Of a DNA stretch of 64,000 nucleotides, positions 1 through 9,641 are shown in pieces. Position 1 is the first letter of the stretch, and each line of letters starts with the position of its first letter. The position numbers were made by a program, and so were the translations under genes. The notes under the pieces are model-generated. The model was not told the origin of the DNA. It did no database searches and saw only the letters and a program-made list of their open reading frames with translations. This DNA comes from Streptomyces sp. NBC_01268. Lineage in GTDB: Bacteria > Actinomycetota > Actinomycetes > Streptomycetales > Streptomycetaceae. The stretch covers positions 2,418,001 to 2,482,000 of the forward strand of contig NZ_CP108454.1 of NCBI RefSeq assembly GCF_036240795.1. The letters run 5' to 3'.

Positions 1-332
1 CGCCGGACCCGTCCTCGAACCCGTACCTCGCCTTCTCCGCCCTGCTCCTCGCGGGCCTCGACGGCATCAAGAACAAGATCGAGCCCATGGAGCCGATCGA
101 CAAGGACCTGTACGAGCTGGCTCCGGAGGAGCACGCGAACGTCCCGCAGGTCCCGACCAACCTCGAGGCCGTCCTCACCGCCCTGGAGGAGGACAACGAG
201 TACCTGCAGGCCGGCGGCGTCTTCACGTCCGACCTGATCGAGACGTGGATCGACTACAAGCGCACCAACGAGATCGCCCCGATCCAGCTGCGCCCGCACC
301 CGCACGAGTTCGAGCTGTACTTCGACCTCTAG
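1..332 (+). CDS. glnA: Type I glutamine synthetase, C-terminal end (partial)
   Basis: The reading frame is open from the left edge (codons in phase with base 3) and ends at TAG 330-332, giving about 109 C-terminal residues of a GlnA enzyme (glutamate + NH3 + ATP to glutamine). Recognisable pieces are the [17 protein letters not shown] helix and the KNKIEP and ELYFDL termini of actinobacterial GlnA. The adenylylation-site Tyr segment (NLY) would lie off the left edge. GlnE, which adenylylates GlnA, is encoded in this same window at 41794-44781. A strong hairpin terminator follows. The call is confident; start and promoter are not visible. Confidence 0.95.
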
Positions 333-366
333 AGCGTGAGGCTCGTTCGAGCCGCGGACACACCTG

Positions 367-412
367 ACGGACGGGCCCCGGGCCGGCATGACGCCGCCCG
401 GGGCCCGTCCGT
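367..412. terminator. Bidirectional terminator between glnA and the surface-protein gene
   Basis: A perfect 16-bp inverted repeat (367-382 with 397-412) encloses a 14-nt loop and is followed by TTT on the + strand. It sits between the convergent 3' ends at 332 and 438, so it can stop transcription from both sides. Confidence 0.85.
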
Positions 413-437
413 TTCCGCCGTTCCCGCCCGGCTCGGC

Positions 438-1724
438 TCAGTCCAGGTCGCGGTAGCGACGCCGCCACGCGTGGACGAGGACCACGAGAGCACCGATCAA
501 GGTCAGCCCGCCGGCCGCCACGGCGACGAACCCGAGGACACTCGGGCTCCCGGTGGAGGCGAGCTCGGAGGCGCCGGCGCCGGCCGAGGACGCGGAGGCC
601 GCCGTGTCGACCGGGCCGGGGCCCGTGCCGCCGGTCGGGCCGGGGCCGGCCGTAGCGCCGGGAGAGCCCGGGTCGGCCGTCGCCCCCGGTGTGGTCGGGG
701 AAGGGGAAGCGGACGGGTCCGGGGGCGTGCTCGCCGAGTCACTCGGGTCCGGAGTGGGCGACGTCGGGGTGGTGGCCTCGGTCCAGCTCGCCTTCGCGTG
801 CGCGGTGACGGGAACGCGGTCGCCGCTCACCAGGCCCAGGGCCTGGCTGCCCTCACCGACCAGCTTGTGGCCCGTCCGGACCGGCACGGAGGCCGTCGCC
901 GAGACGGTCGCGCTGCCCGGCGGCGTACCGGCCGGCGCCTTCACGAAGAGCGACCCGCCGTCCGCGGCGGGTCGGGTCAGCTTGCCGCTGCCGTCCGAGA
1001 GGACGTTCCCCTCCCGGTCGGTCAGCGTCACCCCGGCCGCGACGGCCGCGGGGTCGAGGGAGGCGCCGACCGGGTCGCCGGCGGAGCCGATCCCGATCGG
1101 TCCGAGCACCGACCCGGCGGGCCCGGTCACCGTGCCGGGGGCGAGGGTCAGCGAGGGTGTCGGTTCCTCGACGTCGACGGCGTGTGCCACGAGGTAGTCG
1201 GCGAGATCGGCTCCGGCCGGGTTCATCGGGACCGCCTTGACGTGGTTCGTGAGGCGCCAGATGGCGGCCTGGGTCCCGCCGGCCGCCGCGTTCTTGGACA
1301 GCTTGGCGCCGATCTGCTCGCCGAGCGCCGCCTCGGTCAGGCTCGGGTACCCGTGCCGCAGGATCCAGTCGATCTTCCCCGCGTCCGGGTTGCCCTTCAG
1401 CGTGGGCACCTCGGACGCGCCGGCCTCCCGGTATGCGGCGCCCTCGCGCAGTTCGGTCAAGGCGTCGAGGCAGTACACGAACAGGGTGTCGCCGTCAGCG
1501 GTCCGCACCTTGATCAGGCCGCCGGGCAGCCCGTCGTCCTTGCCCTCGGGCTCCGTGACGTGTCCGATGTAGTCCCTCTCGCCCATCGTGAGCTCCTCGA
1601 CGACCAGCCTCCCGTCGCCCCCGGCACCGGCCTCGGCCGCGACTGCCGTCGTCGCGGCGCCGCTCGCCAGCATTCCGCTCACGAGCACGCCGCTCGCCGT
1701 ACGGATCATGCGTTTCCGCCCCAC
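438..1724 (-). CDS. Secreted thioester-domain (TIE) surface protein with LAXTG sortase signal
   Basis: About 428 residues from GTG at 1724; GTG at 1730 and ATG at 1709 are alternatives, and an AGGGAG ribosome site lies at 1735-1740. A signal peptide (MIRTASGVL...AVAAEA) is followed by a domain with a Cys in VYCLD and a Gln in GGTQAAIWRLTNH. These are the two residues that form the internal Cys-Gln thioester in TIE surface proteins, which can couple covalently to host or surface amines. A Pro/Thr/Ser-rich stalk (PTSPTPDPSDSAS...) leads to LASTG, a hydrophobic helix and an RRRYR tail, the class E sortase (LAXTG) signal typical of Streptomyces. It is monocistronic and convergent with glnA. I infer wall attachment; the ligand is unknown. 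Confidence 0.8.
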   Translation of the reverse strand: MGRKRMIRTASGVLVSGMLASGAATTAVAAEAGAGGDGRLVVEELTMGERDYIGHVTEPEGKDDGLPGGLIKVRTADGDTLFVYCLDALTELREGAAYREAGASEVPTLKGNPDAGKIDWILRHGYPSLTEAALGEQIGAKLSKNAAAGGTQAAIWRLTNHVKAVPMNPAGADLADYLVAHAVDVEEPTPSLTLAPGTVTGPAGSVLGPIGIGSAGDPVGASLDPAAVAAGVTLTDREGNVLSDGSGKLTRPAADGGSLFVKAPAGTPPGSATVSATASVPVRTGHKLVGEGSQALGLVSGDRVPVTAHAKASWTEATTPTSPTPDPSDSASTPPDPSASPSPTTPGATADPGSPGATAGPGPTGGTGPGPVDTAASASSAGAGASELASTGSPSVLGFVAVAAGGLTLIGALVVLVHAWRRRYRDLD

Positions 1725-2143
1725 TGCCACTCTTCTCCCTGTATGCGCCACTACGGACTCGAACAAAGCTATGGACGGCCGCACCGGCCCGAGGGCGGAA
1801 AGCGAGGGGAGTTCCTGCGGACCGGTGCCGCAGCTTCCTGCAGAGCGGGAGGCCGCCCGTCTATGACCCCATAGCTTCGCCTTATGGGACACCACCGGAC
1901 AGGAGTCCCCAACACCCCACACGGGCAAGCCACTTGAGGTCAGGACGTGAGCCTGCCCACGGAGCGAGCCCGGGGCGTTGGTCCTTCCGGGCACGGACCT
2001 AGGTCCCTGGGGAGAGGGGGCCGGGCCGTTGGACGATCTCCGTCCGGCAAGGGCCCCGCATTCGGGGTCGGGGCCCTTGCCCGCTCATGGACGGCCGACA
2101 GGAGAAACGGGGTGCAATCGGGGTGGGCACGGTGGAAGGCAAC
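1725..2143. other. Divergent intergenic region with three dyads
   Basis: This 419-base stretch separates the surface protein (-) from the HTH regulator (+). I see a CTATG/CATAG dyad with a 4-base spacer (1861-1874), a perfect 12-bp palindrome GGACCTAGGTCC (1995-2006), and an 11-bp GC-rich hairpin (2047-2080). No convincing -35/-10 pair and no short ORF with a good ribosome site was found. The palindromes are candidate operators. Confidence 0.4.
2047..2080. terminator. Hairpin upstream of the HTH regulator (terminator or attenuator-like)
   Basis: A perfect 11-bp stem (2047-2057 with 2070-2080) has a 12-nt loop and no U-tract. It lies about 60 bases before the chosen regulator start and within 7 bases of an upstream in-frame ATG (2087), which argues against that ATG being the start. 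Confidence 0.4.
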
Positions 2144-3097
2144 ATGCTCGCGTTCCTCGGAGTGAGCGCGGGCGAGGAGGCGGTCTACCGGACGACCCTG
2201 CGTTCACCGGGGCTCGGCATCGCCGCGATAGCCGGTGCGTGCGGGATCGACGAGGAGAGCGCCGGGGCCGCGCTCGGCAGGCTCCGGGAGCTCGGCATGG
2301 TGGCCACGGCCGACCAGCGGACGTTCACCGGCACCGACCCGGTGTCCGTGATCGACCGGCTGGCCCGCCTGCGGATACGCGGACTCCAGGGGGAGATCCG
2401 CCGCGTCGCCTCGTCGCGCCACCTCGTGGAGAGCCTGGCCGAGGACCGGCGCGCCGGGACCTGGGACCGGGCCGTCGAGCTCCAGCACGTCGAGGGCCTC
2501 GACCAGGTGATCGCGTGCGTGGACGAGTTGTCGTTCTTCGCGCGCGAGGAGCGCCTGACCACGCACCCGGGCCCGATCCTCGCCGCCGCCCTCGACGCCG
2601 TCAGGAGCTCCGACCTGAAGTACCTGCGGCGGGGCCTGCGGATGCGGACCCTCGTGCACGACGGCGCGCTCGGCTCCCCGGAGGTCGGCCGCTTCGTGTC
2701 GGAACTGACCGAGCGGGGCGCCCAGGTGCGGGGCACGGCCGGGCCGCTCGAACGCATGGTGATCTTCGACCGGCGGACCGCCCTCGTGGCGACCGACCCG
2801 GCGGACATCACGCGCGGCGCCCTGGTGGTCCGCCACCCCGCACTCGTCGGCTTCCTCCTGCCTCTCTTCGAGTCCCGTTGGTCCCGGTCCCGTGGCCTCG
2901 TGGACGACCTGCCGAGCCCCACCGAACTGCGCGTCCTGCGCGCCATGGCCCGGGTGGCCAAGGACGAGGCGGGCGCCCGCGAACTCGGCATGTCCGTCCG
3001 CACCTACCGGGGCCACGTCGCCGCCCTCATCCGCCGCCTGGACGCACCCAACCGCTTCGCCGCGGCCCTGGCGGCCCGGGAGCGGAACTGGCTCTGA
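2144..3097 (+). CDS. HTH transcriptional regulator (TrmB-like N-terminus, LuxR-like C-terminus)
   Basis: 317 residues from ATG 2144, which has GGAAGG four bases upstream; in-frame GTG 2132 and ATG 2087 are alternatives. The N-terminal ~70 residues form a winged-helix-like region (GIAAIAGACGIDEESAGAALGRLRELGMV). The middle resembles the sensor half of TrmB/PLD-like regulators (LRRGLRMRTLVHDGAL, FVSELTERGAQVRGT, MVIFDRRTALV). The C-terminus has a LuxR-type HTH (ELRVLRAMA...GARELGMSVRTYRGHVAALIRRL). There is no receiver or ATPase domain. It ends 90 bases before the Hsp90-like gene and could control it. Such orphan regulators are common in Streptomyces; the ligand is unknown. Confidence 0.75.
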   Translation: MLAFLGVSAGEEAVYRTTLRSPGLGIAAIAGACGIDEESAGAALGRLRELGMVATADQRTFTGTDPVSVIDRLARLRIRGLQGEIRRVASSRHLVESLAEDRRAGTWDRAVELQHVEGLDQVIACVDELSFFAREERLTTHPGPILAAALDAVRSSDLKYLRRGLRMRTLVHDGALGSPEVGRFVSELTERGAQVRGTAGPLERMVIFDRRTALVATDPADITRGALVVRHPALVGFLLPLFESRWSRSRGLVDDLPSPTELRVLRAMARVAKDEAGARELGMSVRTYRGHVAALIRRLDAPNRFAAALAARERNWL

Positions 3098-3187
3098 CGG
3101 ACTGCGGGGTGCCCGTCCGCGCCGCTTGCTACGTTCGTCCTTCCTGCGTGCCGCGTGCGCGTCGCAGCGGAGGAAGGGGGCGGTGAG

Positions 3188-6100
3188 GTGGAGCAGGGTG
3201 GGACCCGCAACGTCGTCGACGGCGGGGCGGTGACGGGGCCGGTGGTCCAGGCCGGGGAGATCGGTGTCCTTCATCTCCACGCGACCGTTCCCCCGCCCTC
3301 GGCCGAGGGCGGGGCACCCGCCGACCCCTGGGTGCGTGCGGTCGGCGGCTCCGCCGTGTGGGAGCACGTGGCCGGGGACCGGGACGCGCGGGTGCACCGG
3401 GAGCTGGCCGAGGCGGTGGCGGTGCGGCTGGCCGGGATGCGGGAGGGGGCGAGGCGGGGATCACGGGCGGACGTCCGCGAGGACCCCTGGGACGACCCCG
3501 GGCTTCCGACGCGCTTCCTGGCGCAGGTCGAGTGGCTGCTCGGCGAGCCGGGGGCGGGCCCCGACCTCGATCTCTACCCGGCCGAGGCGGCGCTCCTCGC
3601 GCTCTTCCCGTTCCTCTACCGGGCGCACTGTCTGCTCCGCGTCGAACAGCTCGCGGCGGTCGAGCCCTGGAGCCTGGCCCCGATGCCGGAACCGTCGGCC
3701 GACCGGCGGGCGTTCGAGGTGTTCACCGAAGGGGACGAGGCCCTCGCCCAGCGGGCCCGGCGCGCTCCGGGGGCCGAGCCGGCGGTCGGCTGGTGGCTGT
3801 TCCACCGCTGGCTGGCGCAGCAGCGGGAGTTCGCGGGCGCCGACCCCGTACGCCGGCTGCTGGACGAGCTGGGCGACACGGCGGACGGCCTCGGCGACGC
3901 GCTGGCGCCGCGCCGGGTGACGGCCCTGCTGCACGGGCTGCGGCGCGGCCCCGACGTGTGCCACCCGGAGTTCCTCACCCTGCTGCCCACCGACGACGGG
4001 GTCCGCTCCGGCCCCGGCCACCAGCGCATCCGCGACCAGCGGCTCGCCCTGCTGCTCGCGCTCGCGCACGGCATGGCGATCGAGACGACGGCGCTGCCCT
4101 CGATCGTCGCCGAGCATCTGCCCATCCCGTACCCCGTCGACCTGGACGCGCTGCGCCGCACCCTCGACGCGTCCCACTGGGGCGGTCCGCACGACCACCC
4201 CGTGCTGCGGGCGGAGTGCGGGCACGAGGCGGTGGTGGAGGGGCTGCGCGAGTACACGGCCCGCGCCGACGAACTGCTGCACACGGTGCGGCGGACCGCC
4301 CGCGACCGGATCACCCATGCGCTGCCCGAGCTGCCGACCCGGCTCTCCAGCGACGGCGTGGTGCCGAGCGAGGGCGCCTTCGACGGGTACGCGCGCTTCC
4401 GCGGCGACGGCCGCCGGGTGCTCGACCTCGCCATGGGCGTCCAGCTGTACAAGTCCCGCGACCTGGCGGTCCGCGAGCTGTACCAGAACGCCCTGGACGC
4501 CTGCCGCTACCGGCGGGCCCGCGGTGAGTACCTGGACCGTACGGGGCAGCCGGCCGCCACCCCCTACGTCGGGCGGATCGCCTTCGTGCAGGACGTCGAC
4601 GAGGACGGCCGGGAGTACCTGGAGTGCCGGGACGACGGCGTCGGCATGGGCGACGCGGAGCTCCGCGGCGTCTTCTCCCGGGCCGGCTCGCGCTTCGCCG
4701 AGCAACTGGAGTTCACCCTGGAGCGGGCCGCCTGGGAGCGCCTCGACCCGCCCGTCACCCTGTACCCCAACAGCCGCTTCGGCATCGGCGTCCTCAGCTA
4801 CTTCATGCTCGCCGACGACATCCGCGTGACGACCTGCCGGATGGGGCCCGACGGCGTCCCCGGGCCGGTGTACGAGGTGTCGGTGTGCGGGCCCGGGCAT
4901 CTGTTCCGGATCGTCCAGGTGGCGGCGCGGGGGCGGGAGCCGGGGACGCGGGTGCGGTTGTACCTGCGGCCCGGCACGGTGGAGGAGGGGTGGTCGAGCG
5001 TCGACGTGCTGGAGCGGGTGCTGGGGATCGCGGAGTTCCCGACGAGTGCGCGGCAGGGGGCGGGGCCGGAGAGTGCGTGGGTGCCGGGGGTGCTGCGGGA
5101 GCGTCAGGGCCGTCAGAGTGAAGGCTTCGCCTTCAACGCGCACGGGCGCCTGGTGCCCTGGCCCGACGCGCCGGAGGGTGTGGACGTGGTCTGGTGCGAG
5201 GCGGGCGGCGCGCTCCTCGTGGACGGCTTGTTGGTGGGGCCGCAGGTGCGCACGGGGGTCTTCGGCCGCCAGAGGTCGGGGCTGACCGGCGCCGTGGTGA
5301 ACCTCAGAGGGCCCCTGTCGCCGGGGATGCTGTCGGTGGACCGGCTGCATGTCGTCGACGACGTGGCACCGATGGTCGGTGAGCTGCTGCGGCAGGCGTC
5401 GACGACCCTCTCCTACCAGGACCCGGAGGACCTGCCGGACTTCGAGTGGGTCTGCCGGGTGGCGGACGGAAGCCCGGTCCTCGCCGACATCGTGACCTCG
5501 GCGCTCGCCGCGCGGGGGCGGACGCTGGAGTTCAGGGGCCAGGCCTTCGGCTGCCCGGAGGCAGGCTTCCTGCCGATGGACTTCTCCCTGCTGCCGGATT
5601 CCCCGGGCACCGACAGGTACGTCGCCCTTCCCTGGGCCAAGGAAGGGGGGAAGCAGCTGGACCACGTCTACTTGTGGCGGCTGCTCGCCCATCGGCACCC
5701 TGCTCTGAGGGACCTGACGGAGGTGTGCCCGGAGGTCGAGGACGCGGGACCGGTCCTGCGGGCCGTCCCGTCCGACCAGTGGCTGCTCCACGAATCAGGG
5801 GCGCGGTGGCTCCATGGCGTCCCCGGCGCGGCCCACTCCCTCCGGGACGACCCCCGCGCGCTGGCGCGGCGGATGGCCGGCCTCGGTTTCCCTGCCGTGG
5901 ACCCCGGGCACTGGGCGCCCGGAGCCCGGCTCACCGAGGCGAACGCCCGGGTCTTCGGCGACCCGTCGTCCTCTTCCGAGAGGCTTCTCCGGAACAACCG
6001 GCTCACCCCGGACGCGCTGTCGAGCGCGGCGGGCCGCATGCGGGCCGGCGTCGAGGAGGCGGCGGCACATCTGCGCCGGTTCGGGTTCACCGTCCCCGAG

Positions 6101-7111
6101 CACGTCGAGCGGCAGGCGGCGGCGTCGGACGAACTGCTCGTCGTCGCGCCGGGAACGCACAACGCCGCTCTCCTGGACCCCGAGGACGTCGTCCCACCCG
6201 GGCACATCGCAGCGGCCGCCTCCCTGTCGGGGCTGCCCGTTCCGGACGTGTGCCGTCGGCTCGCCTCGTACGGTCTGACCGTCGATCCGGGCGGTGTCCC
6301 CGAACACCCCTGCGCCGCGGACCTCGTACTGCTGAGCGCGCGGGGAAACGGCACGTCGCCCTGGCTCGACCGGTCGAAGGTGACCCCTCCCGGGCACGCG
6401 CTGGCCGTGGCGGAGCGGCTGGACCTGCCCTTGGCGGAGGTACTCGCGCGGCTCACCGGGCTCGGGTTCACCGTGCCCGCCGTGTTTCCCGCCGACGCGA
6501 GCCCCAAGGACGTGCCGTTCCTCTCGGACGTCTTCGACCGGACCTTCCTGACCCTCGCGGAACCGCCGTTGTACGCCGTCCTGCTCGACGGGGTGGACGA
6601 CCTGTCGGTCCTGCGCCGCAAGCTGGCCCGGCTGCGGGCCTACGGATTCGACGTCGCCCTGGACGTGCCCGCCCGCCCGACCGCCCTCGATCGCGAGCTC
6701 CTGCAGCCTTACCGCTCGTTCGCCTGGTGGGTCCCTGTGGGCGAGCCCGTTCCCTTCACGCACGTCCTGATGGCGGCACGCGCCCTCGGCACCACCCCCC
6801 GCGACATCGCGAAGCGCCTGCGGGCCTGCGGAGTGACGCCCACGCACGACGATCTGCCGTCGGGGGTGTCCTTCACCGAGGCCGTGGCGCTGCTCAGGCT
6901 GGACGAGGGGGAGGAGGACGAGCCTCCGCTGGCCTCCGACTTCAGCCTCCAGTACCTGCACCGCACCGCCGTCCGCCGCGACATCACCCTCACCGAGGCC
7001 GTCGACCTCATCCGCCGCCTCGGCGTCCCCCTCCCCGACCCCGCCGACACCGTCCGCGCCGCCCTCGCCCGCGTCCCCCGCCCCCCGTGCAACGAACACG
7101 CGAACAGGTGA
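3188..7111 (+). CDS. Hsp90-like (HATPase) repeat protein, conflict-system type
   Basis: 1307 residues from GTG 3188, preceded by GGAGGAAGG at 3169-3177; the open frame extends to 3155. The N-terminus carries the short motif RNVVDGGAVTGPVVQAGEI often seen in front of actinobacterial effector proteins. Residues about 90-380 are helical and resemble the inactive-HD-type region of such proteins. A GHKL/Hsp90 ATPase follows: N-box ELYQNALDA (~430), G1 DDGVGM (~482), G2 GIGVLSYFM (~532) and G3 PGTRVRLYL (~586). From about residue 890 to the end I count seven repeats of 60-66 residues, each closing with L-x-x-x-GF/GV-x-V, probably small winged helices. Known family relatives are predicted NTP-dependent conflict (defence) proteins; the function here is inferred, not shown. 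The CDPS-P450 pair follows after 117 bases. Confidence 0.75.
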   Translation: MEQGGTRNVVDGGAVTGPVVQAGEIGVLHLHATVPPPSAEGGAPADPWVRAVGGSAVWEHVAGDRDARVHRELAEAVAVRLAGMREGARRGSRADVREDPWDDPGLPTRFLAQVEWLLGEPGAGPDLDLYPAEAALLALFPFLYRAHCLLRVEQLAAVEPWSLAPMPEPSADRRAFEVFTEGDEALAQRARRAPGAEPAVGWWLFHRWLAQQREFAGADPVRRLLDELGDTADGLGDALAPRRVTALLHGLRRGPDVCHPEFLTLLPTDDGVRSGPGHQRIRDQRLALLLALAHGMAIETTALPSIVAEHLPIPYPVDLDALRRTLDASHWGGPHDHPVLRAECGHEAVVEGLREYTARADELLHTVRRTARDRITHALPELPTRLSSDGVVPSEGAFDGYARFRGDGRRVLDLAMGVQLYKSRDLAVRELYQNALDACRYRRARGEYLDRTGQPAATPYVGRIAFVQDVDEDGREYLECRDDGVGMGDAELRGVFSRAGSRFAEQLEFTLERAAWERLDPPVTLYPNSRFGIGVLSYFMLADDIRVTTCRMGPDGVPGPVYEVSVCGPGHLFRIVQVAARGREPGTRVRLYLRPGTVEEGWSSVDVLERVLGIAEFPTSARQGAGPESAWVPGVLRERQGRQSEGFAFNAHGRLVPWPDAPEGVDVVWCEAGGALLVDGLLVGPQVRTGVFGRQRSGLTGAVVNLRGPLSPGMLSVDRLHVVDDVAPMVGELLRQASTTLSYQDPEDLPDFEWVCRVADGSPVLADIVTSALAARGRTLEFRGQAFGCPEAGFLPMDFSLLPDSPGTDRYVALPWAKEGGKQLDHVYLWRLLAHRHPALRDLTEVCPEVEDAGPVLRAVPSDQWLLHESGARWLHGVPGAAHSLRDDPRALARRMAGLGFPAVDPGHWAPGARLTEANARVFGDPSSSSERLLRNNRLTPDALSSAAGRMRAGVEEAAAHLRRFGFTVPEHVERQAAASDELLVVAPGTHNAALLDPEDVVPPGHIAAAASLSGLPVPDVCRRLASYGLTVDPGGVPEHPCAADLVLLSARGNGTSPWLDRSKVTPPGHALAVAERLDLPLAEVLARLTGLGFTVPAVFPADASPKDVPFLSDVFDRTFLTLAEPPLYAVLLDGVDDLSVLRRKLARLRAYGFDVALDVPARPTALDRELLQPYRSFAWWVPVGEPVPFTHVLMAARALGTTPRDIAKRLRACGVTPTHDDLPSGVSFTEAVALLRLDEGEEDEPPLASDFSLQYLHRTAVRRDITLTEAVDLIRRLGVPLPDPADTVRAALARVPRPPCNEHANR

Positions 7112-7228
7112 CGAATTACTGCCCCTACCCCCGAGTAGAGCTCTCGCTCTCCGTGACTGATCGATAGCGTGTCGTCGTCGCGACCGCCACACCCGGAGCA
7201 CTGGGCTCCGCTGGGACTAGTTGGCGCG

Positions 7229-7969
7229 ATGAGGACTCTGAACGTGACTCAGGCGGCTTTCGCCCCTGTGGAGACGCTCCAACTCCAGCCGTACACCGCC
7301 CATTGCCGCGTCATCGCAGACGAGGGCGCACACGTGGTCATCGGCGTCTCCCCGGGGAACAGCTACTTCACGGCCCAGCGGCTGCGCGATCTGGCGCGCT
7401 GGGGGCTCGCACACTTCGAGACGGTCGACTTCGTCTACACCGACCTGCATGTCGCCGACATGTACGAGGCCCTCGGGTACGGGGCCGAGGAGGCGCGGCG
7501 GAAGGCCGTGAAGAACCTGCGGGGGGTGCGCGCGAAGGTGCACGCCGCCGTGGCCGAGGAGGATCCGTCGGGGCTGCGGCTCCGGGCCCGGGGGATGTCG
7601 GAGTTCACGGGGGTGCCGGCGTACCGGGCGCTGCACGTGGAGACCGTGGCGGCCGTGACCGGGGACCCGGCGGTGGGGCGGACGTGCGACGCGCTGGCCG
7701 GGATCTTCCTGGCCGGGAAGCTGGCGCCGGGGCAGGAGATCACCGAGCGGCAGCGGGAGGTGTGCCGGGAGTACATCTGCGCCGAGGTGCCGCTGTTCCT
7801 GGACACGCCCGCGATCCTCGGGGTGCCGTCCTCGCTGAACGTCTACCACCAGGCCCTGCCGCTCGCGGACCTGTTGTACGCCCGGGGGTCCGGACTGCGG
7901 GCCTCGCGCAACCAGGGGCACGGCATCCTCACGCCCGCCGGCCCCCGTACCGAAGGAGACCCCCGATGA
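7229..7969 (+). CDS. tRNA-dependent cyclodipeptide synthase (NYH subfamily)
   Basis: 246 residues from ATG 7229; an upstream GTG at 7169 has no ribosome site. Cyclodipeptide synthases take two aminoacyl-tRNAs and release a 2,5-diketopiperazine. The family fingerprint is complete: the GVSPGNSYF loop carries the nucleophile Ser41 and Asn44, YICAEVP carries Tyr182 and Glu186, and NVYH carries Tyr206 and His207. Every one of these sits at AlbC numbering plus 4 (Ser37, Asn40, Tyr178, Glu182, Tyr202, His203), which places the enzyme in the NYH subfamily. Its TGA overlaps the P450 ATG (ATGA at 7966-7969), so the two are translationally coupled. By the partner P450 I predict cyclo(Tyr-Tyr) or a close relative; substrate choice cannot be read safely from sequence. 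Confidence 0.93.
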   Translation: MRTLNVTQAAFAPVETLQLQPYTAHCRVIADEGAHVVIGVSPGNSYFTAQRLRDLARWGLAHFETVDFVYTDLHVADMYEALGYGAEEARRKAVKNLRGVRAKVHAAVAEEDPSGLRLRARGMSEFTGVPAYRALHVETVAAVTGDPAVGRTCDALAGIFLAGKLAPGQEITERQREVCREYICAEVPLFLDTPAILGVPSSLNVYHQALPLADLLYARGSGLRASRNQGHGILTPAGPRTEGDPR

Positions 7970-9153
7970 CGGCGAGCACCGTCGAGACCCTGCCCGCCTT
8001 CCCGTTCGACTGGGACGGCACCCGGCTGCCCGCGGAGGTCGAGCGGCTGCGCGCGGAGCCCGTGCGGAAGGTGCGGACCATCGCGGGGGCGGAGGCCTGG
8101 CTGGTCTCCTCGTACGGGCTGTGCCGGCAGGTCCTGGAGGACCCGCGGTTCAGCCTGAAGGACACCTCCGCCCCGGGCGCGCCGCGGCAGTACGCGCTGA
8201 CGATCCCGCCGCACGTGGTGAACAACATGGGCAACATCACCGGCGCGGGGCTGCGCAAGGCGGTGATGAAGGCGCTCAATCCGAAGGCGCCCGGTCTGGA
8301 GGAGTGGCTGCGGGCGCGGGCCGGTTCGCTGGTGGACGCGCTGGTCGGCGAGGGGGCGCCCGGGGAGCTGCGGGGCGGGTTCGCCGATCCGTACTCGGCG
8401 GGGCTGCACTGCCGTCTGCTCGGCATCCCCGAGGAGGACGGGCCGAGGCTGCTGCGCAGCCTGGACGTGGCGTTCATGAACGCGCCGCGCGAGATCGAGG
8501 CGGCGCGGCTCCACTGGGACCGCGACCTCGCGTACATGGTGGAGCGGCTCGACGATCCGGCGACCGGCGGGCTGATGGCAGAGCTGGCGGCGCTGCGGGA
8601 CGACCCCGAGTACGCGCATCTGACGGACGAGATGCTGGCGACGGTCGGCGTGACGCTGTTCGGGGCCGGGGTGATCTCCACCGCCGGGTTCCTGACGATG
8701 GCGCTGGTGTCGGTGCTGACCCGGCCGGACGTGCGGGAGGCGCTGGCCGGGGGCGGGGTCGCCGGGGCGATGGACGAGCTGCTGCGGGTGAACCTGTCGA
8801 TCGGCGACGGGCTGCCGCGGATCGCGCTGGAGGACGTGTGGCTGGGTGACGTGCTCGTGCGGGCCGGTGAGCTGGTGCTGGTGCTCGTCGAGGCGGCCAA
8901 CCACGACCCGGAGCACTTCGCCGAGCCGCTGGCCTTCCGGCCGGGCCGGGAGAACGCGGCCGACCACCTCTCCTTCGGCGGCGGCCGGCACTACTGCCCG
9001 GCCACCGCGCTCGGCAAGCGGCACGCGGAGATCGCCCTGGAGACGGTGCTGGAACGGCTGCCCGGGCTGCGGCTCGCGGTGCCGGTCGAGCAGCTGGTGT
9101 GGCGCACCAACTTCATGAAGCGGCTGCCCGAGCGGCTGCCCGTGGCCTGGTAG
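7966..9153 (+). CDS. Cytochrome P450, CYP121-like (cyclodipeptide oxidase)
   Basis: 395 residues; ATG 7966 has GAAGGAG 8 bases upstream and overlaps the CDPS stop. The heme loop FGGGRHYCPAT puts the ligand at Cys344; the K-helix ExxR is ELLR. Compared with Mycobacterium tuberculosis CYP121 from memory, long blocks agree: PPxVVNNMGNI, GLRKAVMKA, the I-helix FGAGVIST, DGLPR, GDVLVRxGELVLVL and the VWRT...PERLPV-W tail. CYP121 couples the two Tyr rings of cyclo(Tyr-Tyr) to mycocyclosin and also lies next to a CDPS. A visible difference is near the C-terminus: Met-Lys here where CYP121 has Gln385-Arg386, a pair reported to contact substrate. So the substrate or chemistry may differ slightly. No ferredoxin gene lies nearby. 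Confidence 0.92.
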   Translation: MTASTVETLPAFPFDWDGTRLPAEVERLRAEPVRKVRTIAGAEAWLVSSYGLCRQVLEDPRFSLKDTSAPGAPRQYALTIPPHVVNNMGNITGAGLRKAVMKALNPKAPGLEEWLRARAGSLVDALVGEGAPGELRGGFADPYSAGLHCRLLGIPEEDGPRLLRSLDVAFMNAPREIEAARLHWDRDLAYMVERLDDPATGGLMAELAALRDDPEYAHLTDEMLATVGVTLFGAGVISTAGFLTMALVSVLTRPDVREALAGGGVAGAMDELLRVNLSIGDGLPRIALEDVWLGDVLVRAGELVLVLVEAANHDPEHFAEPLAFRPGRENAADHLSFGGGRHYCPATALGKRHAEIALETVLERLPGLRLAVPVEQLVWRTNFMKRLPERLPVAW

Positions 9154-9217: not shown

Positions 9218-9493
9218 TCAGCGGCCGTAGCGGATCAGGGCCCGGACCATGTGGCAGGTGGTGTCGGAGGGCGGGTGGATGCCGAGCTGGACGGCGGTCG
9301 TGCGGATCTTCGCGTTGGTGGCCCGCGACGGGATGTAGACCCCGGCGTCGAGCAGGGCTATCGCGAGGCGCATGGCCTTCAGTCGGCGGTTGTGGGTGAC
9401 GTACCACTCGCGGGGGCGGCCCGCGGGGAGCGGCTGCTTCTGGAGCGGCTTCCAGGGTTCGAGGGACGGTGTCCGGATCACGGCGAGAGCCAT
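9218..9493 (-). CDS. Small basic conserved protein of unknown function
   Basis: 91 residues from ATG 9493, preceded by AGGAGG with a 6-base spacer; the frame extends to 9577 but without a better start. It is rich in Arg/Lys and Pro at the N-terminus (RTPSLEPWKPLQKQPLPAGRPRE), followed by a helical segment (RLKAMRLAIALLDAGVYIP) and a possible HTH-like stretch (NAKIRTTAVQLGIHPPSDTTCHMVRALIRYGR). That layout suggests nucleic-acid binding, but I do not recognise a family. It has no signal peptide or membrane segment. It is a single gene between two + strand genes. Confidence 0.6.
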   Translation of the reverse strand: MALAVIRTPSLEPWKPLQKQPLPAGRPREWYVTHNRRLKAMRLAIALLDAGVYIPSRATNAKIRTTAVQLGIHPPSDTTCHMVRALIRYGR

Positions 9494-9641
9494 GCGCGAC
9501 CTCCTGGCGAACGGTGGGCGAGAGCCCTCCCCGGGACCCTCACCTTCACCCCCGATTTTAGTCGCGACCACTGACAATCGCCCCTGGCCAGACCGGCTTT
9601 AGTGGCTCGTTGGGCGGCCCTTCGGGCGGTACGTTGGGGGC

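What the first reader, a model, noticed from the sequence alone, without database searches (positions are those of the whole stretch)
7229..9153. CDPS plus CYP121 orthologue: a mycocyclosin-type pathway in a Streptomyces
The CDPS has every catalytic residue at AlbC numbering plus 4 and is of the NYH type. The coupled P450 shares long blocks with M. tuberculosis CYP121, including VVNNMGNI, FGAGVIST and the PERLPV tail. In Mycobacterium the equivalent pair makes cyclo(Tyr-Tyr) and then mycocyclosin. The Gln385-Arg386 pair of CYP121 appears as Met-Lys here, so the product may be a variant.
Basis: partly seen in the sequence, partly recalled or inferred. Interest (0 to 1): 0.78.

Follow-up and report, generated by a model that had tools for sequence, protein, structure and literature searches.

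The report
Tyrosine-dipeptide operon with conserved RNA leader
This Streptomyces carries a known kind of two-gene pathway that fuses two tyrosines into a ring and then cross-links the ring or attaches a DNA-type base to it; the surprise is a small, apparently folded RNA at the start of its message, shared by nearly all relatives of this pathway that were checked in its genus and not matched in the RNA catalogue searched.

Summary
In detail: an intact cyclodipeptide synthase (CDPS) gene overlaps an intact CYP121-like P450 gene by 4 bases. The nearest characterised enzyme is not CYP121 (59.8% identity) but Streptomyces GymB1 (71.1%). The gym operons are published (PMC10092475, passages): six, expressed in S. 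albus, gave mycocyclosin and also cyclo(Tyr-Tyr) joined to guanine or hypoxanthine (guatyromycines). The Met-Lys pair is no local variant: 98 of 98 gym-like P450s have it, as do both crystal structures of that clade; five proteins of the mycobacterial clade have Gln-Arg or Ala-Arg. The CDPS passes NCBI's cyclodityrosine-synthase cut-off. The enzymes are a new member of a known kind.

New here: a ~66-nt covarying element between promoter and ribosome-binding site (7171-7237). A covariance model finds it upstream of 50 of 53 P450 hits of this superclade in 199 Streptomyces genomes (the other 3 are 46-51% identical), once in this genome, and before small LuxR-family regulators in six genomes without such a P450. 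Four mycobacterial-type loci lack it. The stretches tested matched no Rfam 15 family. Its function is unknown; ribosome-site masking was tested and not supported. The CDPS start is probably GTG 7244.

The parts
7165..7170 (+). putative -10 box TAGCGT
   Evidence: TANNNT starting 2-7 nt before the leader model in 60 of 69 leaders; 9.5 expected in shuffles, highest 17. The generic sigma-70 scan found nothing here.
7171..7237 (+). conserved 5' leader element, probably RNA (model positions 1-66)
   Evidence: R1 59.2 bits, only match at E<=1 in the 8.5-Mb genome; covariation; no Rfam match overlapping it
7181..7187 (+). outer helix, 5' strand (alignment columns 11-17)
   Evidence: 79.8% of cells paired over 58 leaders; in the window itself the pairing runs with bulges; RNAalifold prefers another register
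7194..7199 (+). inner hairpin, 5' strand CGGAGC
   Evidence: 89.6% of cells paired, 4 of 6 pairs with changes on both sides
7205..7210 (+). inner hairpin, 3' strand GCUCCG
7213..7219 (+). conserved GGGACUA of the internal loop, opposite CCACACC (7187-7193)
   Evidence: mostly nearly invariant columns; the regular expression that collected the leaders asked for parts of both
7220..7227 (+). outer helix, 3' strand
7231..7235 (+). ribosome-binding site GAGGA, 8 nt before GTG 7244
7244..7969 (+).
7349..7351 (+). catalytic Ser codon (AlbC Ser37)
7966..9153 (+). CYP121/GymB-type cytochrome P450 gene, overlapping the CDPS stop by 4 nt
8995..8997 (+). heme-ligand Cys codon (CYP121 Cys345)
9115..9120 (+). 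Met-Lys at CYP121 Gln385-Arg386, the gym-like signature
   Evidence: 98 of 98 gym-like P450s

Best explanation
A gym-type two-gene operon. The CDPS takes two Tyr-tRNAs and makes cyclo(Tyr-Tyr). The P450 oxidises a tyrosine ring: the oxidised (radical) intermediate closes within the molecule to mycocyclosin, or is trapped by guanine or hypoxanthine to give guatyromycines. The message begins at a small conserved element that ends at the ribosome-binding site of the CDPS gene and probably acts as a regulatory RNA, by an unknown signal. Shown by computation: gene identity, clade, signature residues, a conserved covarying leader and its linkage to these operons. Taken from the literature on orthologues: the reactions and products. 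Inferred: the radical trapping by nucleobases, that this copy is active, its product ratio, and that the leader is a regulatory RNA.
For: P450: GymB1 610.5, 8q6x 548.3, CYP121 517.7, PtmB 469.2 bits; identities 71.1, 66.6, 59.8, 58.1%; gym+CYP121 clade 100/100. CDPS: NF052540 385.2 bits with cut-off 300, while 4 of 4 CDPSs tested beside gut-type or far P450s fall below (269.2, 293.8, 247.4, 205.0); 19 of 22 listed positions equal Rv2275, among them V33, M119, L185, N200 and Q204 (AlbC numbering, choice of positions recalled), whereas three gut-type CDPSs have L33, L119, F185, A/S200. Published: six gym operons in S. albus gave mycocyclosin and guatyromycines A and B (PMC10092475, passages of section 7). 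Leader: 84.3% of cells paired against 78.7% in shuffles (0/500) and 30-47% when slid; 77 double-change cells against 34 and 2-22; TANNNT at a near-fixed place in 60 of 69; model upstream of 50 of 53 P450 hits in 199 genomes.
Against: No chemistry or expression was measured. Which gym products a given sequence makes cannot be read from it. No redox partner is among the six flanking proteins scanned. For the leader: masking of the ribosome-binding site is no stronger than with the 5' flank shuffled (0.61 against 0.61), though the window's own value is 0.80; single-sequence folding is significant in only some (z from -3.92 to 0.00 over six); 'further pair types' does not exceed shuffles in A1 (214/500); A2 is fitted to the model and leans towards the structure; the leaders for A1 were collected with a regular expression naming parts of the conserved loops, so conservation there is partly by construction; over all 13 pairs of A2, mismatches other than G-U (115 cells, 79 of them at the two end pairs) outnumber G-U wobbles (43). 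An insertion of about 6.8 kb just upstream may have changed expression here.
Confidence: 0.8

Rival explanations
1. A strict mycocyclosin pathway as in mycobacteria: the P450 only closes the ring and adds no nucleobase.
For: Same clade as CYP121; Trp182, Phe168, Asn85, Thr77, Ser237 and Ala233 conserved with CYP121.
Against: Closer to GymB1 by score and identity; Met-Lys, Leu62, Tyr74 and Ile280 shared with GymB1 and 8q6x, not with CYP121 (the last three also with PtmB); a clade with the mycobacterial proteins alone rejected (p 0.0008).
Confidence: 0.15
2. A cyclo(Trp-Trp)/guanitrypmycin (gut) pathway.
For: P450 58.1% identical to PtmB; the leader element is shared with gut-type loci.
Against: Separate clade, 100/100; CDPS letters and NCBIfam score are of the cYY type; Met-Lys, not Ile-Lys.
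Confidence: 0.03
3. The leader is a DNA operator (palindrome) for a protein, such as the small LuxR-family regulator that carries the same element, not an RNA.
For: The inner helix is a palindrome; the element precedes LuxR-family genes in other genomes, which could be autoregulation; G-U wobbles are not commoner than other mismatches over all pairs.
Against: Nested helices around asymmetric conserved loops; at pair 16-52 all departures are G-U (6 of 58 in A1); near-fixed place between a -10 box and the ribosome-binding site; no homologue of that LuxR protein at E<=1e-20 in this genome.
Confidence: 0.2

Closest known systems
gym operons / GymA-GymB (mycocyclosin and guatyromycines, Streptomyces)
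   Same: Two-gene CDPS-P450 locus, cyclodityrosine-type CDPS, P450 in the same clade (71.1% to GymB1), Met-Lys signature
   Different: Products of this copy unmeasured; about 6.8 kb inserted upstream; no leader RNA is mentioned in the review passages I saw (original paper not held)
Rv2275 / CYP121 (mycocyclosin, Mycobacterium)
   Same: CDPS 61.1% and P450 59.8% identical; 19 of 22 listed CDPS positions the same; same clade
   Different: Gln-Arg in place of Met-Lys (Ala-Arg in two relatives); no leader element at the four mycobacterial-type loci held
gut / ptm operons (cyclo(Trp-Trp) plus guanine or hypoxanthine)
   Same: Same architecture, related P450, same leader element in gut-type loci
   Different: Different CDPS letters, Ile-Lys signature, separate clade
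Riboswitch candidates of Streptomyces that take in the ribosome-binding site (e.g. the dauA motif, PMC11109978, passages only)
   Same: Conserved leader at the ribosome-binding site
   Different: No Rfam 15 match for ours; different genes; ligand unknown

Membership tests
gym operon (GymA-GymB) | Adjacent CDPS and P450, orthologous to gym | tested here: met
   4-nt overlap; clade with GymB1 and CYP121
gym operon (GymA-GymB) | CDPS makes cyclo(Tyr-Tyr) | tested here: inconclusive
   By sequence only: NF052540 over cut-off, letters as Rv2275 at 19 of 22 positions
gym operon (GymA-GymB) | P450 both cross-links cYY and couples nucleobases | not testable with these tools
   Published for orthologues
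CYP121 / mycocyclosin synthase | Same clade as CYP121 | tested here: met
   gym+CYP121 100/100; sister or nested not resolved, AU p 0.353
CYP121 / mycocyclosin synthase | Gln385-Arg386 | tested here: not met
   Met-Lys; two of the five mycobacterial-clade proteins themselves have Ala-Arg
gut / guanitrypmycin operon | P450 in the PtmB clade, cWW-type CDPS | tested here: not met
any Rfam 15 RNA family (for the leader) | match at gathering score | tested here: not met
   0 matches in 6 sources; relaxed scans of three short stretches gave only sub-threshold matches elsewhere or on the other strand, or none
riboswitch | conserved structured 5' leader with covariation | tested here: met
riboswitch | binds a small molecule and switches expression | not testable with these tools
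   ribosome-site masking not above control

The most novel reading that the evidence does not exclude
The leader is an undescribed class of cis-regulatory RNA, perhaps a compact riboswitch, that controls nucleobase-coupling cyclodipeptide operons of both the cyclo(Tyr-Tyr) and cyclo(Trp-Trp) kinds, lone P450s of this family, and a family of small LuxR regulators. A ligand common to these pathways, such as a purine or a finished product, would explain why unlike CDPSs share it; direct binding of the CDPS, itself an enzyme that handles tRNA, would be autoregulation.
Probability: 0.5. Interest if true: 0.75.

Novelty: new variant of a known kind. Interest (0 to 1): 0.55.

Why it matters
The enzymes extend a published family. 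Two points are useful: a lysine at CYP121 position 386 (Met-Lys in gym-like, Ile-Lys in 13 of 14 gut-like P450s) against arginine in the mycobacterial clade is a testable handle on why some of these enzymes couple nucleobases; and the leader gives these operons a candidate switch. A regulatory RNA class in front of natural-product operons would show what signal turns them on and offer a way to wake silent ones.

Tried and rejected
A pure mycocyclosin reading and a cyclo(Trp-Trp) reading were weighed and set below the gym reading. Whether CYP121 is sister to or nested in the gym family could not be settled (AU p 0.353; the quick tree, with one long CYP121 branch, nested it). Masking of the ribosome-binding site: not above control. 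A generic promoter/terminator scan found nothing. A first motif script was far too permissive (810 hits) and was replaced by one anchored upstream of the P450 and then by a covariance model. PADLOC gave nothing for the upstream HSP90-like protein. No structure was predicted.

Of 13 model matches without a P450 hit: six precede small LuxR-family genes (L177, L179, L180, L183, L186, L191); one lies before a P450-like gene broken over two frames (L176); one before a CDPS-start-like stretch and a P450 scrap (L181), one 1.6 kb before a P450 scrap (L182), one near neither (L178); three look like chance (L184, L185, L192; E 0.003-0.01). No CDPS was found by tblastn in any of these 13 stretches, nor in L124 or L128.

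Rows dropped: 13 (12 identical to others, L129 too short). Of 69 candidate leaders, alignment A1 took 57, three with corrected positions, plus L124; left out were six script errors (L089, L125, L127, L128, L135, L139) and six near-duplicates.

Full report
1. The observation. Two genes lie on the + strand: a CDPS ending at 7969 and a P450 from 7966 to 9153, overlapping in ATGA. The window lies in an 8.5-Mb single-contig genome with one CDPS hit; its nearest relatives are Streptomyces.

2. Start codon. In 23 rows (window and 22 close loci, some the same locus from two collections) a GTG or TTG at window position 7244, 7-9 nt after GAGGA, is present in 23; the ATG of 7229 is in frame in 14, out of frame in 6 and replaced in 3. 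I therefore prefer GTG 7244 (241 aa); it is not proven.

3. What the CDPS is. NCBIfam's cyclodityrosine-synthase model gives 385.2 bits with a cut-off of 300. Three further gym-type CDPSs also pass (390.3, 431.7, 416.0); four CDPSs beside gut-type or far P450s do not (269.2, 293.8, 247.4, 205.0). It is 61.1% identical to Rv2275 over 226 positions. Of 22 positions listed (choice recalled from AlbC work) 19 equal Rv2275, including 33, 119, 185, 200 and 204; 101, 155 and 159 differ and also vary among other gym-type CDPSs. Three gut-type CDPSs have Leu33, Leu119, Phe185 and Ala or Ser200.

4. What the P450 is. Best solved relatives: GymB1 610.5 bits, 8q6x 548.3, CYP121 517.7, 9o4d 469.3, PtmB 469.2. 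Identities: 71.1, 66.6, 59.8, 58.8, 58.1%. In a careful tree of 59 proteins, gym and mycobacterial-clade proteins form one clade and gut proteins another, both 100/100. Holding the window's close group together with the mycobacterial clade alone is rejected (p 0.0008); a gym clade excluding CYP121 is not (p 0.353). Met-Lys at 385-386 occurs in 98 of 98 gym-like P450s (the window counted, the crystal structures not) and in both gym-clade crystal structures; Ile-Lys in 13 of 14 gut-like. CYP121 and two relatives have Gln-Arg, two more Ala-Arg. The relatives come from a genus the tool does not name; I take it to be Mycobacterium because one CDPS (L139) is 87.9% identical to Rv2275.

5. What is known. 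I saw passages of PMC10092475: a widely distributed 'gym' locus; six of these two-gene clusters in S. albus gave mycocyclosin, guatyromycine A (guanine on the phenolic oxygen) and guatyromycine B (hypoxanthine ortho). The original paper is not held; I saw only its title in a reference list. From PMC7954767 I read parts 1-2 of 4: CYP121 shares high homology with nucleobase-coupling P450s. From PMC13122648 I read part 1 of 3: GutD and PtmB products.

6. Spread. P450 relatives at E<=1e-80 (gym, gut and further types together): 45 of 199 genus genomes, 46 of 150 family genomes, 9 of 296 class genomes, 1 of 201 in another family, 1 of 100 in a third, and 4 of 248 in the genus of the CYP121-like proteins. 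The named-genome search kept the best 80 of 104 relatives; in all 80 a CDPS hit accompanies the P450. Of 129 loci examined (the window's own twice, some shared between collections), 127 had both, always on one strand; 115 overlapped.

7. Surroundings. In 4 of 5 relatives compared by DNA, window 1-331 matches (91.5-95.1%) the 3' end of a glutamine synthetase gene, and only 95-261 nt lie between that match and the point where homology to the CDPS promoter region resumes. The gene in L034 is type I GlnA (665 bits, cut-off 429). In the window 332 to about 7091 is extra, including a 1318-aa iHD-CE/HSP90-like gene; this protein hit 1 of 80 relatives' loci (L052, 35%, elsewhere). Downstream, a 119-aa gene and an ArsC-like gene are matched in 14 of 80, and GlnII (675 bits) in 13.

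8. The leader element. Aligning upstream regions showed a block of about 66 nt conserved beyond its surroundings: upstream columns average 0.42-0.43 identity without gaps, while the block has 12 invariant and 15 nearly invariant columns in 58 sequences. Part of that is by construction, because the sequences were collected with a regular expression naming parts of the loops; but of 109 leader rows examined, 103 matched a similar expression, of which L081 and L142 were false hits, and three of the six misses (L005, L009, L013) show the element with small changes. It can fold as an outer helix, an internal loop with CCACACC opposite GGGACUA, and an inner hairpin with a five-base loop. Named pairs are formed in 84.3% of cells, against 78.7% in shuffles and 30-47% when slid; cells changed on both sides 77 against 34 and 2-22; covariation score 0.254 against 0.156. 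The number of further pair types did not exceed shuffles (214/500). A second alignment of 70 matches agrees but is fitted to the model; over all its pairs, mismatches other than G-U (115 cells, 79 at the two end pairs) outnumber G-U (43). RNAalifold prefers another register for the outer helix and adds two nearly invariant C-G pairs, so the outer helix is less certain than the inner. In six single sequences z ran from -3.92 to 0.00; the window's is -2.03.

9. It is probably transcribed. A TANNNT box starts 2-7 nt before model position 1 in 60 of 69 leaders, where shuffles gave 9.5 on average and 17 at most; 8 of 13 printed upstream stretches also show TTGACA or TTGACG about 18 nt before it, the window not among them. 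The leader would thus be the first part of the message and end at the ribosome-binding site.

10. Linkage. In 199 genus genomes it hits 51; the second hits 53, with 63 matches. Fifty matches lie within 1.5 kb upstream of a P450 hit; 50 of 53 P450 hits have one, and the three without are the 46-51% identical ones. By genome: both 42, RNA only 11, P450 only 3, neither 143; Fisher p 3.6e-29, not corrected for relatedness, and many of these loci had supplied the model. In a class-wide sample the second model hits 7 of 246 genomes: six have a P450 hit and one (G056) is a LuxR case. No match at the four mycobacterial-type loci at E<=5, and only a chance-level one (13.9 bits) among L125-L127.

11. 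Beyond the pathway. Two of the proteins were scanned and both are GerE. A search with one of them found 11 homologues in 8 of 150 genomes, none in this genome; the second model places the element at 5 of the 11 with 33 bits or more (four of these had trained it) and at 3 more with 19-28 bits. Three loci (L124, L128, L176) have the leader before a P450 with no CDPS found.

12. Novelty of the leader. No Rfam 15 match at gathering score in six sources; relaxed scans of three short stretches gave nothing credible. Paper searches for cyclodipeptide synthase with riboswitch (8 papers, all listed), Streptomyces structured-RNA terms (8 papers, 7 listed) and cyclodipeptide with RNA-motif terms (108 papers, 10 listed) listed no title or abstract start naming such a leader; I saw passages of two papers. 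The library holds open-licence papers only.

13. Mechanism. Masking of the ribosome-binding site was the obvious guess and is not supported: mean paired probability 0.61 over 69 leaders, control 0.61; the window's own is 0.80. A ligand, the CDPS itself, or another protein remain open.

Noticed in passing
window 332-7091: About 6.8 kb present here but not in 4 of 5 relatives compared, between a type I glutamine synthetase gene (3' end at 1-331) and the CDPS promoter; holds a 1318-aa iHD-CE/HSP90-like gene (3155-7111) whose end abuts the CDPS promoter region.
   Followed up: partly
L177, L179, L180, L183, L186, L191: The leader element also precedes small (about 115-125-aa) LuxR-family regulators in genomes without a P450 hit of this family.
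   Followed up: partly
L139, L142, L143, L144: CYP121-CDPS pairs in only 4 of 248 genomes of one genus, with Gln-Arg or Ala-Arg at 385-386 and no leader element.
   Followed up: partly
L124, L128, L176: CYP121-type P450 loci with the leader element but no CDPS found; the P450 of L176 is split over two frames.
   Followed up: partly
L181, L182, L178: Leader copies beside scraps of the P450 (L181, L182) or no pathway gene found (L178), suggesting operon loss.
   Followed up: partly
G085 (L018, L128 and two matches not fetched): One genome with four P450 hits of this family, each with the leader element.
   Followed up: no
L125, L126, L127: More distant P450s (46-51% identical) with a CDPS gene upstream but no leader element; perhaps different products.
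   Followed up: no
window 9221-9577 (-): Conserved 119-aa protein without a Pfam or NCBIfam match at E<=0.001, next to the P450 in 14 of 80 relatives.
   Followed up: no
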